DNA of 64,000 bases from Hydrogenophaga sp. (GTDB lineage Bacteria > Pseudomonadota > Gammaproteobacteria > Burkholderiales > Burkholderiaceae_C): the NCBI GenBank assembly GCA_011391495.1, contig JAABQK010000008.1, forward strand, positions 1 through 64,000, written 5' to 3'. Shown piece by piece: positions 34,422-50,122 of this stretch; position 1 is the stretch's first letter, and every line of letters starts with the position of its first letter. The notes below the pieces were generated by a model, which was not told the DNA's origin, searched no databases, and saw only the letters and a program-made list of their open reading frames with translations. The position numbers were made by a program, and so were the translations under genes.

Positions 34422-34970
34422 ATGGACTCATTTCACGGAACCACCATCGTCTGCGTGCGTCGCCAGACACCCGATGGGGTGCAGGTCGCCATCGGCGGCG
34501 ATGGTCAGGTCACCCTGGGCAACATTGTGGTCAAGGGCACCGCGCGCAAGGTGCGCAAGCTGCACCACGACCAGGTGCTGGCCGGGTTTGCGGGCGCGAC
34601 GGCCGACGCGTTCACACTGTTTGAGCGCTTCGAAGCCAAGCTGGAGAAGCATCAGGGACACCTGGTGCGGGCGGCCATTGAACTCACGCGCGACTGGCGA
34701 ACCGACCGTGTGCTGCGCCGTCTCGAGGCGATGCTGGCCGTGGCGGACCGCAGCGCCGCCTTGATCATCACCGGCAACGGTGACGTGCTGGAGCCCGAGC
34801 ACGGCGTGGTTGCCATCGGCTCGGGCGGAGCCTATGCCCAGGCCGCAGCCCGCGCACTGACGGCCCACACCGCACTGAGCGCGGAAGAGGTGGTCCGCCA
34901 GTCGCTGGCCATTGCGGGTGAGATTTGCATCTACACCAACATGAACCACACCATTGAAACACTGGACTGA
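34422..34970 (+). CDS. hslV: ATP-dependent protease peptidase subunit HslV
   Basis: A 182-residue threonine protease that forms a dodecamer capped by HslU and degrades misfolded and regulatory proteins. After a six-residue propeptide MDSFHG the mature Thr-Thr nucleophile opens [19 protein letters not shown] and [14 protein letters not shown] are conserved. E. coli HslV has no such propeptide beyond Met. A 177-bp repeat-filled gap separates it from hslU. Confidence 0.97.
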
Positions 34971-34980
34971 AACCATGAGC

Positions 34981-35057
34981 GCAGCGCAGGGCCGCCCCAG
35001 GCAAGCTCGCGCCCCCTCGGGGGGCAGCGGAGTACACGAGGTGACGAGCGTGGGGGC
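34981..35057 (+). repeat. tandem repeat, family A (copy A3)
   Basis: First of two 77-bp copies spaced 87 bp apart between hslV and hslU: GCAGCGCAGGGCCGCCCCAG, CCCCCTCGGGGGG hairpin, AGTACACGAGGTGACGAGCG, end GGGGGC. Confidence 0.85.
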
Positions 35058-35067
35058 TTTCATGGCC

Positions 35068-35144
35068 GCAGCGCAGGGCCGCCCCAAGCAAACTCGCGCC
35101 CCCTCGGGGAGCAGCGAAGTGCACGAAGTGACGAGAGCGGGGGC
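35068..35144 (+). repeat. tandem repeat, family A (copy A4)
   Basis: Second copy, about 90% identical to A3 by eye; the hairpin is weakened (CCCCCTCGGGGA) and the end reads GTGACGAGAGCGGGGGC. The hslU start is three bases downstream. Confidence 0.85.
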
Positions 35145-35147
35145 CAC

Positions 35148-36476
35148 ATGTCGGCCATGACTCCCCAGGAGATCGTCTCCGAACTCGACCGCTTCATCAT
35201 CGGTCAGCAAGGCGCCAAGCGTGCCGTGGCGATTGCGCTGCGCAACCGCTGGCGTCGCCAGCAGGTCGACGACAAGCTTCGGCCTGAGATCACACCCAAG
35301 AACATCCTGATGATCGGGCCCACGGGCGTCGGCAAGACCGAGATCGCGCGGCGGCTGGCCAAGCTGGCGGATGCGCCCTTCATCAAGGTGGAGGCCACCA
35401 AATACACCGAAGTGGGTTATGTGGGCAAGGACGTGGACGGGATCATCCGCGACCTCGCGGAGATCGCGATCAAGCAGACCCGCGAGGCGGAGATGCGCAA
35501 GCAGCGCGTCCGGGCCGAAGATGCAGCCGAGGAACGCATTCTGGATGTGCTCGTGCCGCCGCCGCGCAGCGTGGGACCGGAGGGTTCTGCAGCGGGTGAA
35601 AACACCGCGCGCCAGGCCTTCCGCAAGAAGCTGCGGGAAGGCCAGCTGGATGAGCGCGAGATCGAAATTGACCTGGTCGAGCCACGGCCGAGCATGGAGA
35701 TCATGGGCCCGGCCGGCATGGAAGACATGGCCGAGCAGCTGCGCGGCATGTTCAGCCAGATGGGACAGGACAAGCGTCGAACGCGCAAGCTCAGGATCAA
35801 AGAGGCGATGCAGCTGCTGATCGACGAGGAGGCCGGCAAGCTGGTCAACGAAGAGGAAATCAAGGCCCGAGCGCTGGAGAACGCCGAGCAGAACGGCATC
35901 GTCTTCATCGACGAGATCGACAAGGTGGCCTCGCGCAGCGACTCCGGCGGTGCCGATGTGTCGCGCCAGGGGGTCCAGCGCGACCTGCTGCCGCTGGTGG
36001 AGGGCACGACGGTGTCCACCAAGTACGGCATGGTCAAGACCGATCACATCCTGTTCATCGCCAGTGGCGCGTTCCACCTGTCCAGGCCGAGCGACCTGAT
36101 TCCCGAGCTGCAGGGCCGTTTTCCCATCCGGGTGGAGTTGCAGTCGCTCTCGGTCGATGATTTCGAGGCGATCCTGACGCAGACCCACGCCTCGCTGGTG
36201 CGCCAGTACCAGGCCTTGCTGGCCACCGAGGGCGTGACGCTGGTGTTCACGCCGGAAGGCATCCGGCATCTCGCGCAGATCGCGTGTGACGTCAACGAGC
36301 GCACCGAAAACATCGGTGCCCGGCGCCTGGCGACGGTGATGGAGCACCTGCTGGACGAGGTCAGCTTTGGGGCCACCGGCCTGCAGGGCCAGACGGTGAC
36401 GGTCGATGCCGCCTATGTGGACGGCCGGTTGGCGGCCTTGAGCCGGAACGAGGACCTCTCGCGCTACATCCTGTAG
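35148..36476 (+). CDS. hslU: HslU, ATPase of the HslVU protease
   Basis: A 442-residue AAA+ unfoldase. Walker [10 protein letters not shown] at residues 57-65, Walker [14 protein letters not shown] (~249), the inserted I-domain at ~105-235, arginine finger region [16 protein letters not shown] (~384), and the C-terminal DLSRYIL that docks into HslV. ATG at 35148 or 35157 could both serve. No heat-shock promoter is evident; it probably depends on the hslV transcript through the repeats. Confidence 0.97.
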
Positions 36477-46217: not shown

Positions 46218-47521
46218 TGGCCGCCCTGCGCACCATCCTGGCCCGGCTGCGGAATACCCTGGCGGCCGTCCTGCCGCGCCTGGCCGGCCGGGACTTGGCG
46301 GGTGCGCTCGCCGGTGGCAGCAGCGACGGCCTGCCGGTGCGCCTGTCCAACCGCACGTACGCCGGCACGCGCAACGTGGCCGTGCGCGAACTCGGCTTCG
46401 ACCAGCCCCTGATATGGGTGGTGGTGGCCTTGCTGAGCTGGGGTCTGGTGATGGTGTATTCGGCCTCCATCGCCTTGCCCGACAATCCGCGCTTTGCCAA
46501 CTACGCCCACACGCACTTTGTGCTGCGCCACGGCCTCTCGATGCTCATCGGCGTCGCGGCGGCCTGGGTGGCGTTCCAGTTCCCGCTGCGGGCCTGGGAA
46601 AAAATGGCGCCCTGGCTGTTCGCCGTGGCGCTGCTGCTGCTGGTGCTGGTGCTGATTCCCTTCATCGGCAAGGGTGTCAATGGCGCGCGGCGCTGGATCT
46701 CGCTGGGCGTCATGAACTTCCAGCCCTCCGAACTGGCCAAGCTCGCCGTGCTGCTGTACGCGGCCGACTACATGGTCCGCAAGATGGACGTGAAGCAGCG
46801 CTTCTTCCGGGCGGTAGCCCCGATGGCGGTGGCCGTGGGCGTGGTCGGCATGCTGCTGCTGGCCGAGCCCGACATGGGGGCTTTCATGGTGATCGTGGTG
46901 ATCGCCATGGGCATCCTGTTCCTCGGCGGCGTCAACGCGCGCATGTTCTTCCTGATGGCCCTGGTGGTCGTGGCCGCCTTTGCACTCATGGTCATGACGA
47001 GCGACTTCCGGCGCCAGCGCGTCTTTGCCTACCTCGACCCCTGGAGCGTGGAGCACGCGCTGGGCAAGGGCTACCAGCTCTCCCACTCGCTGATCGCGAT
47101 TGGCCGCGGCGAGATCTTTGGCGTCGGACTGGGCGGCAGCGTGGAAAAGCTGCACTGGCTGCCGGAAGCGCACACCGACTTCCTGCTCGCCGTCATCGGC
47201 GAAGAGTTCGGGCTGATCGGCGTGCTGGTGCTGATCGGCCTGTTCCTCTGGCTCACGCGGCGCATCATGCACATCGGCCGCCAGGCGATCGCGCTCGATC
47301 AGGTGTTTGCCGGCCTCGTGGCCCAGGGCGTGGGTCTGTGGATGGGTTTCCAGGCCTTCATCAATATCGGCGTGAACCTGGGCGCCTTGCCCACCAAGGG
47401 GCTGACCTTGCCGCTGATGAGCTACGGCGGATCGGCCGTGCTGCTCAACCTGGTGGCGATCGCCATCGTGCTGCGTGTCGACTATGAAAACCGTCAGCTC
47501 ATGAAGGGTGGACGGTCATGA
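46217..47521 (+). CDS. ftsW: lipid II polymerase FtsW
   Basis: A 434-residue SEDS glycosyltransferase with ten membrane helices. [10 protein letters not shown] (~75), [20 protein letters not shown] (~156-175), [25 protein letters not shown] (~295) and [10 protein letters not shown] (~397) are typical; the catalytic Asp lies in the HTDF loop. A ~45-residue cytoplasmic N-terminal extension ([19 protein letters not shown]) precedes the first helix. Start ATG 46217 shares a base with the murD stop; GTG 46214 is an alternative. Confidence 0.95.
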
Positions 47522-48600
47522 GCCCCCGCCAACCTTGCGCCCTGATCATGGCCGGCGGCACTGGCGGCCACATCTTCCCCGGCCTGGCCGTGGCCGAAGC
47601 CCTGCGCCGGCGCGGCTGGCGCGTGCACTGGCTGGGCGCACCCGACAGCATGGAAAGCCGCCTGGTGCCGAAGCGTGGTTTCGCGCTGGAACTGATCGAC
47701 TTCAGCGGTGTGCGTGGCAAGGGACTGAAACCCCTGTTCCTGCTGCCCCTGCGACTGCTCAAGGCCTTCTGGCAGGCGCTGCAGGTGGTGCGCCGTGTGC
47801 AGCCCGACGTGCTGGTGGGCCTCGGCGGCTACATCACCTTTCCGGGCGGGATGATGGGCACGCTGCTCGGCAAGCCGCTGGTGCTGCACGAGCAGAACTC
47901 GGTCGCGGGCATGGCCAACAAAGTGCTCGCCGGTGTGGCGGACCGCGTGTTCACCGCCTTCCCGAACGTGCTCAAGAAAGCCGAGTGGGTGGGCAACCCG
48001 CTGCGCACGGAATTCCTGCGTCAGCCCGGGCCCGAGGTGCGTTTTGCCGGCCGCAGTGGCCCGCTGCGTCTGCTGGTGGTGGGTGGCAGCCTGGGTGCCA
48101 AGGCGCTGAACGACACCGTTCCGCAGGCGCTGGGACTGATCCCGTCGGCCCAGCGCCCGCACGTGATCCACCAGAGTGGGGAAAAGCAGATCGAGGCCCT
48201 GCGCGCCAACTACGCCGCTGCCGGCGTGCTGGCGGAACTCACGCCATTCATCGACGACACGGCCCAGGCCTTTGCCCATGCCGACCTGGTGGTGTGCCGC
48301 GCGGGTGCCAGCACCGTGACCGAAATCGCCGCGATCGGTGCTGCCGCCTTGTTCGTGCCCTTCCCCTTTGCGGTGGACGACCACCAGACCACCAACGCAC
48401 GCTTCCTTGCCGACGCCGGCGGTGCCTGGCTGGTGCCGCAGAAAGAATTCACGCCGGCCTCGCTGGCGCAGAAGCTGCAGGCCCTGCAGCGCGCACAACT
48501 CATGGAGATGGCCGTGAAGGCCAAGCAGATGGAAAAGACAGACGCAGTGGCGGCCGTGGTGTCCGCCTGCGAGCAACTCGCGAAAGTGAAACCCGCATGA
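47518..48600 (+). CDS. murG: lipid II synthase MurG
   Basis: A 360-residue GT-B glycosyltransferase that adds GlcNAc to lipid I on the cytoplasmic side of the membrane. [16 protein letters not shown] (~11-26), [12 protein letters not shown] (~100), [13 protein letters not shown] and the UDP-GlcNAc site [15 protein letters not shown] (~261) are clear. Its stop overlaps the ATG of the following mini-ORF. Confidence 0.97.
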
Positions 48601-48716
48601 AACACGCCATTCGCCACATCCATTTCGTCGCGTATTCGGACATGCAGCCCAAGCTTGGGCTGCATCGGGCGGTTCCCGTCGAAGCCGCGAAACGGGCAGG
48701 AGGGCTCACGGCATGA
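48597..48716 (+). CDS. 39-residue mini-ORF duplicating the MurC N-terminus
   Basis: The frame starts in the murG stop (ATGA) and ends in the murC start (ATGA), so it is placed like a gene of the operon. Its first 11 residues [11 protein letters not shown] equal those of MurC, then [12 protein letters not shown] and a tail [16 protein letters not shown] of no recognised family. Over the shared 33 bases the DNA differs from murC at three positions, all silent third-codon changes. A 24-bp perfect palindrome lies within it. It may be a remnant of a duplication, a coupling leader or a real small protein. Confidence 0.55.
48642..48665 (+). repeat. 24-bp perfect palindrome between murG and murC
   Basis: Half-site ATGCAGCCCAAG followed directly by its reverse complement CTTGGGCTGCAT, without a spacer. 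It lies in the mini-ORF between the duplicated 5' sequence and the real murC start. Confidence 0.85.
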
Positions 48717-50122
48717 AACATGCCATTCGCCATATCCATTTCGTTGGCATCGGCGGTTCCGGCATGAGCGGCATCGCCGAGGTGCTGCTCAACCAGGGCT
48801 ACCGCATCTCCGGCAGCGACCTGGGCGCAAACGCCGCCACGCGCCGCCTGGTGGCGCTGGGGGCAGAAGTCTTCACCGGCCACGACGCCAGGTACATCGA
48901 AGGCGCCGACGCCATCGTCACCTCGACTGCGGTGAAGGACGACAACCCCGAGGTGGTTGCCGCCCACGCCAGGCTGGTGCCGGTGGTGCCGCGCGCGGTG
49001 ATGCTGGCCGAACTGATGCGCATGAAGAAGGGTGTGGCGATTGCCGGCACGCACGGCAAGACCACGACCACCAGCCTCGTGGCCAGCGTGCTCGCCGCCG
49101 CGAATCTGGACCCGACCTTCGTGATCGGTGGTCGCCTCAACAGTGCGGGTGCCAACGCCCAGCTCGGCTCGGGCGAGTACATCGTGGTGGAGGCCGACGA
49201 GTCCGACGCCTCGTTCCTCAACCTCCTGCCGGTGCTGTCGGTCGTGACCAACATCGACGCCGACCACATGGACACCTACGGCCACGACTTCGGCCGGCTC
49301 AAGGCGGCGTTTATCGAGTTCCTGCACCGCATGCCGTTCTACGGCGCGGCCGTGGTGTGCGTGGACGATGCCGCCATCCGCGAGATCCTGCCGCAGATCG
49401 CGCGCCCCATCACCAGCTACGGTTTTTCGGAGGATGCCCAGGTGCGCGCGACGAACGTGCGCGCGGTCGGCGGCCAGATGCATTTCACCGTGCAGCGCCG
49501 GAATGGCATCGAGCTGCCGGACCTGGAGGTGGTGCTCAACCTGCCCGGTCATCACAACGTGCTCAACGCGCTGGCGGCCATCGGCATCGCCGTGGAGCTC
49601 GGCGTGGACGATGCGGCCGTGGTGCAGGCGCTGGCCGAGTTCAAGGGCGTGGGACGGCGCTTCCAGCGTTACGGCGAGGCGGCACTGCCGTCGGGTGGCA
49701 CGGTCACGCTGGTGGACGACTACGGTCACCATCCGGTGGAAATGGCGGCCACGCTGTCAGCCGCACGCGGCGCCTTCCCCGGGCGGCGTCTGGTGCTGGC
49801 GTTCCAGCCGCACCGCTACAGCCGCACACGCGACTGCTTCGAAGATTTCGTGAAGGTGATCGGGCACGCCGACGCGGTGCTGCTGGCCGAGGTGTACGCC
49901 GCCGGCGAGGCACCGATCGTGGCGGCCGATGGCCGTTCGCTGGCGCGCGCGCTGCGTGTCGCCGGCAAGCTGGAGCCGGTGTTCGTCGACGACATCGCGG
50001 CGATGCCGCAAGCCATTCTGGACAACGCGCGCGACGGCGATGTGGTGCTCTGCATGGGCGCGGGGTCGATCGGCGCGGTGGCAGGCCAGGTGGTTGAGTT
50101 GGCACAGGGAGGCCAGAAATGA
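48713..50122 (+). CDS. murC: UDP-MurNAc:L-alanine ligase MurC
   Basis: A 469-residue Mur ligase attaching the first amino acid of the stem peptide. [16 protein letters not shown] (UDP site, 10-25), [11 protein letters not shown] (ATP, ~110), [11 protein letters not shown] (~161), DYGHHPVEM (~343) and QPHRYSRT (~370) are intact. Preceded by GGAGGG in the mini-ORF, which can act as its ribosome-binding site. Confidence 0.97.

What the first reader, a model, noticed from the sequence alone, without database searches (positions are those of the whole stretch)
48597..48750. murC 5' end duplicated as a coupled 39-codon ORF between murG and murC
The ORF begins in the murG stop and ends in the murC start (ATGA at both ends). 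Its first 11 codons encode the same residues as Mur[12 protein letters not shown], and the three base differences from murC are all silent, so the amino acids look conserved although the DNA drifted. The next 28 codons are unrelated to MurC. Either a duplication is preserved as a small protein or coupling leader, or an insertion split the original start and a new one arose. I know of no described element of this kind in the cluster.
Basis: partly seen in the sequence, partly recalled or inferred. Interest (0 to 1): 0.72.

Follow-up and report, generated by a model that had tools for sequence, protein, structure and literature searches.

The report
Ribosome relay mini-gene before murC
Between two cell-wall genes these bacteria carry a tiny extra gene that begins as a copy of the start of the next gene and probably hands ribosomes on to it; similar relays were found in several related bacterial groups.

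Summary
In the window (genus Hydrogenophaga, judged from named near matches) a 39-codon ORF (48597-48716) overlaps the murG stop and the murC start by ATGA at both ends. Its first 11 codons copy MurC with three silent changes. The same module (39 codons, 116-nt spacing) is in 4 of 67 Hydrogenophaga genomes and one genome of another genus. Apparently independent murC-head duplications occur in Pseudorhodoferax, a further genus and two other families, with up to three upstream copies. The tail codons show no amino-acid constraint (pN/pS 1.1), but a hairpin inside them keeps pairing through compensatory changes. The copied head does show amino-acid constraint. In the window the module puts a strong Shine-Dalgarno before murC (-10.8 kcal/mol; median of 50 plain relatives -1.65); several other lineages lack this gain. 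Whole-genome searches found no convincing copies elsewhere. I read it as a locus-bound translational relay that works like a mycobacterial MIRU or a synthetic bicistronic leader, but is not dispersed as MIRUs are. A second relay class sits at ftsW-murG in 24 of 115 loci. The effect on MurC and the reason for head conservation are untested.

The parts
47518..48600 (+). murG, upstream partner; its TGA stop overlaps the mini-ORF start
   Evidence: NCBIfam TIGR01133 murG, 332 bits
48597..48716 (+). 39-codon relay mini-ORF, ATGA overlap at both ends
   Evidence: database relatives P0002 (87%) and P0003 (77%), also 39 aa
48597..48629 (+). head copy 1, the first 11 codons of MurC
48642..48665 (+). 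hairpin H1, a perfect 24-bp palindrome in the window; stem kept by compensatory changes in relatives
48668..48680 (+). possible hairpin H2 (GGCGG TTC CCGTC); nearly invariant, so conservation says little about pairing
48698..48704 (+). AGGAGGG, strong Shine-Dalgarno for murC, inside the mini-ORF
   Evidence: -10.8 kcal/mol against a recalled anti-SD
48713..48745 (+). head copy 2, the start of murC proper
48713..50122 (+). murC, downstream partner
   Evidence: NCBIfam TIGR01082 murC, 550 bits

Best explanation
The element is a translational relay mini-cistron. Ribosomes that finish murG restart at the overlapping ATG of head copy 1, translate 39 codons (opening hairpin H1), stop at the next ATGA and restart on murC. 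In this lineage the mini-ORF also brings a strong Shine-Dalgarno, so MurC supply stays tied to murG translation while its initiation is raised, as in an engineered bicistronic leader. It arose by duplication of the murC 5' end plus a hairpin spacer and is bound to this junction; it may spread by homologous recombination through the murC heads and be lost by recombination between the repeats. Shown: anatomy, recurrence, stem covariation, head amino-acid constraint, no convincing dispersed copies. Inferred: that ribosomes run the relay, the effect on MurC level, the routes of gain and loss. The head constraint may reflect a recombination load (a contracted product must still encode a good MurC) or a role of the leader's N-terminus; I cannot tell which.
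For: Relay: 8 of 128 murG-murC loci had one mini-ORF leading to murC with a 4-nt overlap (112 none, 6 untraced, 2 unresolved by the tracer): window, G018, G058, G065, G272, G205, Pseudorhodoferax L053 and Variovorax L111; in family f8 all 5 units of 4 genomes end in ATGA at the next start. Hairpin: 5 of 15 pairs changed on both sides in 5 sequences, reached by 0 of 500 shuffles; in the f8 family 3 of 7 pairs, reached by 7 of 500. Head: 31 of 36 differing codons silent in 10 lineages, P below 4e-7 if copy 1 were neutral; after polarising, copy 1 has 10 silent and 3 replacement changes (4 unresolved), P 1e-5 to 5e-4. Shine-Dalgarno: element-bearing Hydrogenophaga -10.8, -12.0, -10.0, -6.3 against a median of -1.65 in 50 loci without the module, Mann-Whitney P 5e-4; L053 -11.6 and G205 -10.2. 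Locus-bound: R1 scores above 86 bits only at the murC junction, in 4 of 66 genomes; next best 28 bits.
Against: No expression data. G272 has no overlap with the murG stop, its murC Shine-Dalgarno is only -4.7 and that of its copy 1 is stronger (-5.6); G065 (-6.3) lies inside the plain range (strongest plain -8.4). The f8 elements show no gain (-3.0, -3.2, -3.1, -6.5; plain median -4.2, n 23), and f23 shows none that is consistent. In f23 only 2 of 7 units end with a 4-nt overlap; 4 overlap the next start by 11 nt and 1 runs in frame into the next unit. An open frame alone is weak evidence: P of no stop 0.57-0.70. One of the five covariation measures is not above shuffles (150 of 500; 116 of 500), and folding energy is near shuffles in several members, though not for the window junction (z -2.5). 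Most Hydrogenophaga lack the module, so it is dispensable. The lineages in the head tests are not fully independent, and some neighbour genomes count twice. The sign of import into G272 is weak.
Confidence: 0.6

Rival explanations
1. A neutral, tolerated insertion: repeats arise at this junction by slippage, and only those that preserve coupling survive, with no gain in regulation.
For: Patchy presence (4 changes on the murC tree, 5 of 68 rows, 55 of 500 label shuffles as low), variable copy number, and different spacers in different lineages. The R1 model did not find the f23 spacers. L111 has an unrelated insert that still makes a coupled 45-aa ORF.
Against: Covarying hairpins in two families, amino-acid constraint on copy 1, and a spacer 98% identical in G018 and G065 where murC nt 46-450 are 90%.
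Confidence: 0.24
2. The mini-ORF encodes a small protein that acts in trans.
For: 39 aa kept in 5 genomes plus P0002 and P0003; an AVP motif is invariant in the five aligned genomes though not in P0002 and P0003; the head amino acids are constrained.
Against: Tail pN/pS 1.11; tails unrelated between families.
Confidence: 0.06
3. Programmed bypassing: ribosomes start at copy 1 and hop over the spacer to the matching codons of copy 2, so copy 1 encodes the real MurC N-terminus.
For: Matching take-off and landing sequence, a hairpin in between, and amino-acid constraint on copy 1.
Against: No stop codon at the take-off site by inspection; copy 2 keeps its own ATG with a strong Shine-Dalgarno; restarting is simpler.
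Confidence: 0.03
4. An RNA-level switch or processing site: the hairpin controls murC through folding or RNase cleavage, and translation of the ORF is incidental.
For: Stem covariation.
Against: No Rfam match with E below 0.1 in 48400-48900, no terminator-like site in 48300-49000, folding energy close to shuffles in several members, and the overlaps stay unexplained.
Confidence: 0.07

Closest known systems
MIRU (mycobacterial interspersed repetitive units)
   Same: Short repeat unit at a gene start with an ORF inside that is coupled to the next gene by -4 spacing (review PMC12548453, passage of its section 11 read; the original 1997 paper was not seen). Tandem occurrence of MIRUs is recalled.
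   Different: The review calls MIRUs apparently mobile and found in many mycobacteria; this element was found only at its own junction and begins with a copy of the downstream gene's 5' end.
Bicistronic design leaders (synthetic) and natural coupling leaders such as tap-repA (recalled)
   Same: A short ORF that carries the Shine-Dalgarno of the next gene and stops on its start codon.
   Different: Natural, inside a cell-wall gene cluster, recurrently found, and with a conserved copied head plus a covarying hairpin.
REP/BIME-type intergenic palindromes (recalled)
   Same: Palindromic hairpin between genes of an operon.
   Different: No dispersed copies found, and it lies inside a coupled ORF.

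Membership tests
MIRU | Small ORF coupled to the downstream gene with -4 spacing | tested here: met
MIRU | Dispersed at many loci of one genome, apparently mobile | tested here: not met
   own genome, E up to 0.001: only itself and its palindrome; R1 model, 66 genomes: above 86 bits only at the murC junction of 4; 12 other genomes had only weak matches, at most 28 bits
MIRU | Can occur as tandem repeats (recalled) | tested here: met
   only in relatives of other families: G645 three units, G675 and G871 two; the window has one
MIRU | Sequence relationship to mycobacterial MIRUs | not tested
   no MIRU sequence was fetched
Bicistronic/coupling leader | Shine-Dalgarno of the second gene lies inside the leader ORF | tested here: met
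   (window -10.8 kcal/mol); weak in G272 and in three of four f8 genomes
Bicistronic/coupling leader | Downstream translation depends on translation of the leader | not testable with these tools
   needs reporters
REP/BIME | Dispersed extragenic palindromes | tested here: not met
Known RNA family (Rfam) | Match at a curated threshold | tested here: not met
   four matches up to E 10, best E 0.18, all far below gathering scores
Intrinsic terminator or attenuator | GC-rich stem followed by a T run | tested here: not met
   none found in 48300-49000
Functional small protein | Amino-acid constraint over the whole ORF | tested here: not met
   tail pN/pS 1.11; head constrained

The most novel reading that the evidence does not exclude
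Coupled cell-wall genes of Burkholderiales repeatedly evolve locus-bound relay mini-cistrons built from a copy of a neighbouring gene's end plus a covarying hairpin. Their copy number (0 to 3) tunes the ratio of neighbouring proteins, and the copied head is itself under selection and serves as the homology arm by which the cassette spreads between species and is cleanly lost.
Probability: 0.27. Interest if true: 0.82.

Novelty: new variant of a known kind. Interest (0 to 1): 0.67.

Why it matters
Translational coupling is usually treated as fixed 4-nt overlaps. Here the coupling signal itself is duplicated, carried on a short cassette and found in variable copy number at two neighbouring junctions of a cell-wall and division cluster. 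If the relay works as inferred, it is a natural, evolvable device for setting protein ratios in an operon, and plain and cassette-bearing sister species form ready-made test pairs. The amino-acid constraint on the copied head is an open puzzle that can be tested directly.

Tried and rejected
Dispersed mobile element: rejected for this element by own-genome BLAST and the R1 covariance model in 66 genomes (stricter filters, which lose some weak matches). Homology of the Hydrogenophaga and f23 spacers looked likely by eye (shared hairpin layout and GGGCGG), but R1 did not recognise the f23 spacers, so I treat them as separate origins. A Shine-Dalgarno boost as the general purpose: rejected, since the f8 elements lack it. 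Known RNA family and terminator: rejected. Copying of the murG tail as the origin of the spacer: looked at by eye only, not tested. Tandem Repeats Finder on L179 gave no rows.

Calls with little use: 79 (one row had wrong coordinates; replaced by 82) and 88 (listing of papers on senX3-regX3). Searches gave nothing on this junction; 48, 53, 73, 81 and 88 were seen as listings with the starts of abstracts. The only paper opened was PMC12548453, at passages.

Full report
What is there. The window lies in a genome whose best named matches by MurC are mostly Hydrogenophaga; a contig of the same-genus genome G058 has the same length as a named Hydrogenophaga MAG contig (326352 bases). NCBIfam names ftsW, murG and murC above cut-off and finds no family for the 39-aa ORF. 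murG (47518-48600) and murC (48713-50122) are separated by a 39-codon ORF (48597-48716) that shares ATGA with the murG stop and with the murC start. A 34-nt direct repeat, 116 nt apart, covers the murC 5' end twice. The 33-nt heads differ by three silent changes. After the head come a perfect 24-bp palindrome (48642-48665), a second possible stem (48668-48680) and AGGAGGG (48698-48704) before murC.

Distribution. A pattern of two murC heads 101-131 nt apart is in 4 of 67 Hydrogenophaga genomes (G000, G018, G058, G065). In a family sample of 399 genomes 3 match: G000, G272 and G205. In an order sample of 399 a looser pattern matched 35 genomes, of which I judged 4 to be murC heads from the printed letters (G000, G598, G675, G645); about ten genomes matched its reversed control by my count, and the pattern misses other spacings such as 140 nt in G528. 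In G018, G058, G065 and G272 the ORF is 39 codons and the spacing 116 nt, as in the window. The protein database gave two more 39-aa relatives, P0002 and P0003. Reading junctions directly, 8 of 128 murG-murC loci carry one mini-ORF that leads to murC; 112 have none, 6 were untraced and 2 unresolved. Two of those eight untraced or unresolved loci, L179 and L180, do carry units on direct reading. Thirteen loci taken to be second names of the same genome were dropped before this count. MurC searches in other groups found head copies upstream of murC in 4 of 10 g200 genomes with a match (13 searched, 9 with a readable head) and in 4 of 28 f8 genomes with a match (30 searched, 27 with a readable head). 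G645 has three upstream heads and G675 two. Hydrogenophaga G004 has a 27-nt in-frame head duplication.

History. On a murC tree of 68 rows (quick method, head left out) the five carriers of the Hydrogenophaga-type module need 4 changes, and the window's nearest rows G015, G053 and G031 lack it. The sister of G272, G179 (97% MurC identity), and G343 have plain junctions. In G272 the first 60 nt of murC are 97% identical to the best of 26 Hydrogenophaga loci (median 87-90%) and 77-83% to G179, while every 100-nt window after the first is closer to G179. That hints at import of the cassette with the murC start, but it is weak: the best of many donors inflates the figure, G179 itself reaches 93% and 87% to its best Hydrogenophaga there, one later 30-nt window also favours Hydrogenophaga, and the comparison was gapless. 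Precise loss between the repeats is plausible but not shown.

Selection. Over 10 pairs of the five genomes the 28 tail codons have pN/pS 1.11 in the ORF frame and 0.89 and 0.80 in the other frames, so the tail peptide is not conserved. The hairpin is: in 5 sequences 93% of cells pair and 5 pairs changed on both sides, reached by 0 of 500 shuffles, while slid controls pair in 28-51% of cells; the count of pair types alone is not above shuffles (150 of 500). The four f8 spacers have a 7-bp stem with three double changes, reached by 7 of 500 shuffles. The copied head is constrained as protein: between copy 1 and the murC head, 31 of 36 differing codons are silent across 10 lineages. In arrays I used the most upstream copy; nearer copies in G871, G675 and G645 have the murC head unchanged. 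Lineages whose copies are identical (G058, G018, G598, G874, G528) carry no information and were left out. If copy 1 were neutral and murC changed only silently, the chance is below 4e-7 for transition biases up to 8. Polarised with six near loci each, copy 1 has 10 silent and 3 replacement changes, copy 2 has 13 and 1, and 4 are unresolved; P is 1e-5 to 5e-4. Some of those near loci are the same genome twice, and the lineages are not all independent.

Mechanism. In Hydrogenophaga without the module murC has little Shine-Dalgarno (median -1.65 kcal/mol, strongest -8.4, 50 loci, one of them G004 with its in-frame duplication); I infer that it relies on the ATGA overlap. With the module murC gets -10.8 (window), -12.0, -10.0 and -6.3 in the genus (P 5e-4), -4.7 in G272, -11.6 in L053 and -10.2 in G205; head copy 1 has -2.1, -2.1, -4.9 and -1.0 in the genus, -5.6 in G272, -1.5 in L053 and -5.8 in G205. 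The f8 elements show no such gain, and in f23 there is no consistent difference between murC and the copies. I therefore propose a ribosome relay as the common feature and stronger initiation as an addition in some lineages. The hairpin lies inside the relay ORF and would be opened by translating ribosomes; what it does is not known.

Not a dispersed repeat, as far as searched. BLAST with the junction in the own genome finds itself and its own palindrome only. The R1 covariance model, over 66 Hydrogenophaga genomes, scores above 86 bits at the four murC junctions and at most 28 bits elsewhere.

A second relay. At ftsW-murG, mini-ORFs lead by ATGA to murG in 24 of 115 loci (18 with one, 6 with two; 90 none, 1 unresolved; two genomes are listed twice). 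In 20 of the 24 the units have 27-30 codons, and most end like FtsW (LMKGGR or similar, with the Shine-Dalgarno inside); four loci have longer or fused ORFs. In Hydrogenophaga 11 of 55 traced genomes have one, 5 have two and 39 none. In the 9 genomes searched the G040 unit is found full length, or nearly so, only at that junction, in G040 and G018; short weak matches (E 0.006-0.09) occur elsewhere in all nine. The window has none there. In 449 kb made of the window, ten dcw regions and ten other stretches, tandem copies turned up at ftsW-murG, murG-murC and hslV-hslU, plus three other repeats (in L187, L193 and L201) that I did not examine.

Known work. The review PMC12548453 (passages read) describes MIRUs as apparently mobile repeats that insert at start codons so that an ORF inside is coupled with -4 spacing. 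That is the nearest described system I found. This element works like one but fails the test of dispersal, and it differs by carrying a copy of the downstream gene's start. Two searches of the held library for this junction found nothing, which is not proof of absence in print.

Noticed in passing
L009, L013, L020, L033, L066, L084 (ftsW-murG junction); absent at window 47490-47530: Coupled mini-ORFs, mostly of 27-30 codons and mostly ending with a copy of the FtsW C-terminus that carries the murG Shine-Dalgarno, lie between ftsW and murG in 24 of 115 loci, singly or in tandem.
   Followed up: partly
window 34972-35135: Between hslV and hslU (named) a GC-rich palindromic repeat occurs twice, 87 nt apart, inside a 68-aa ORF (34954-35160, TTG start) that overlaps the hslU start; G018 has a similar pair at the same place.
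   Followed up: partly
L111:1867-2004: Variovorax sp. CAN15 has an unrelated insert at murG-murC with a palindrome, flanked by ATGAAGC on both sides and forming a coupled 45-aa ORF, which looks like a MIRU-style insertion.
   Followed up: partly
   Followed up: no
L181 / L226 (G598) position 1: The contig begins inside the murC-head repeat, which may mean that further identical units broke the assembly.
   Followed up: no
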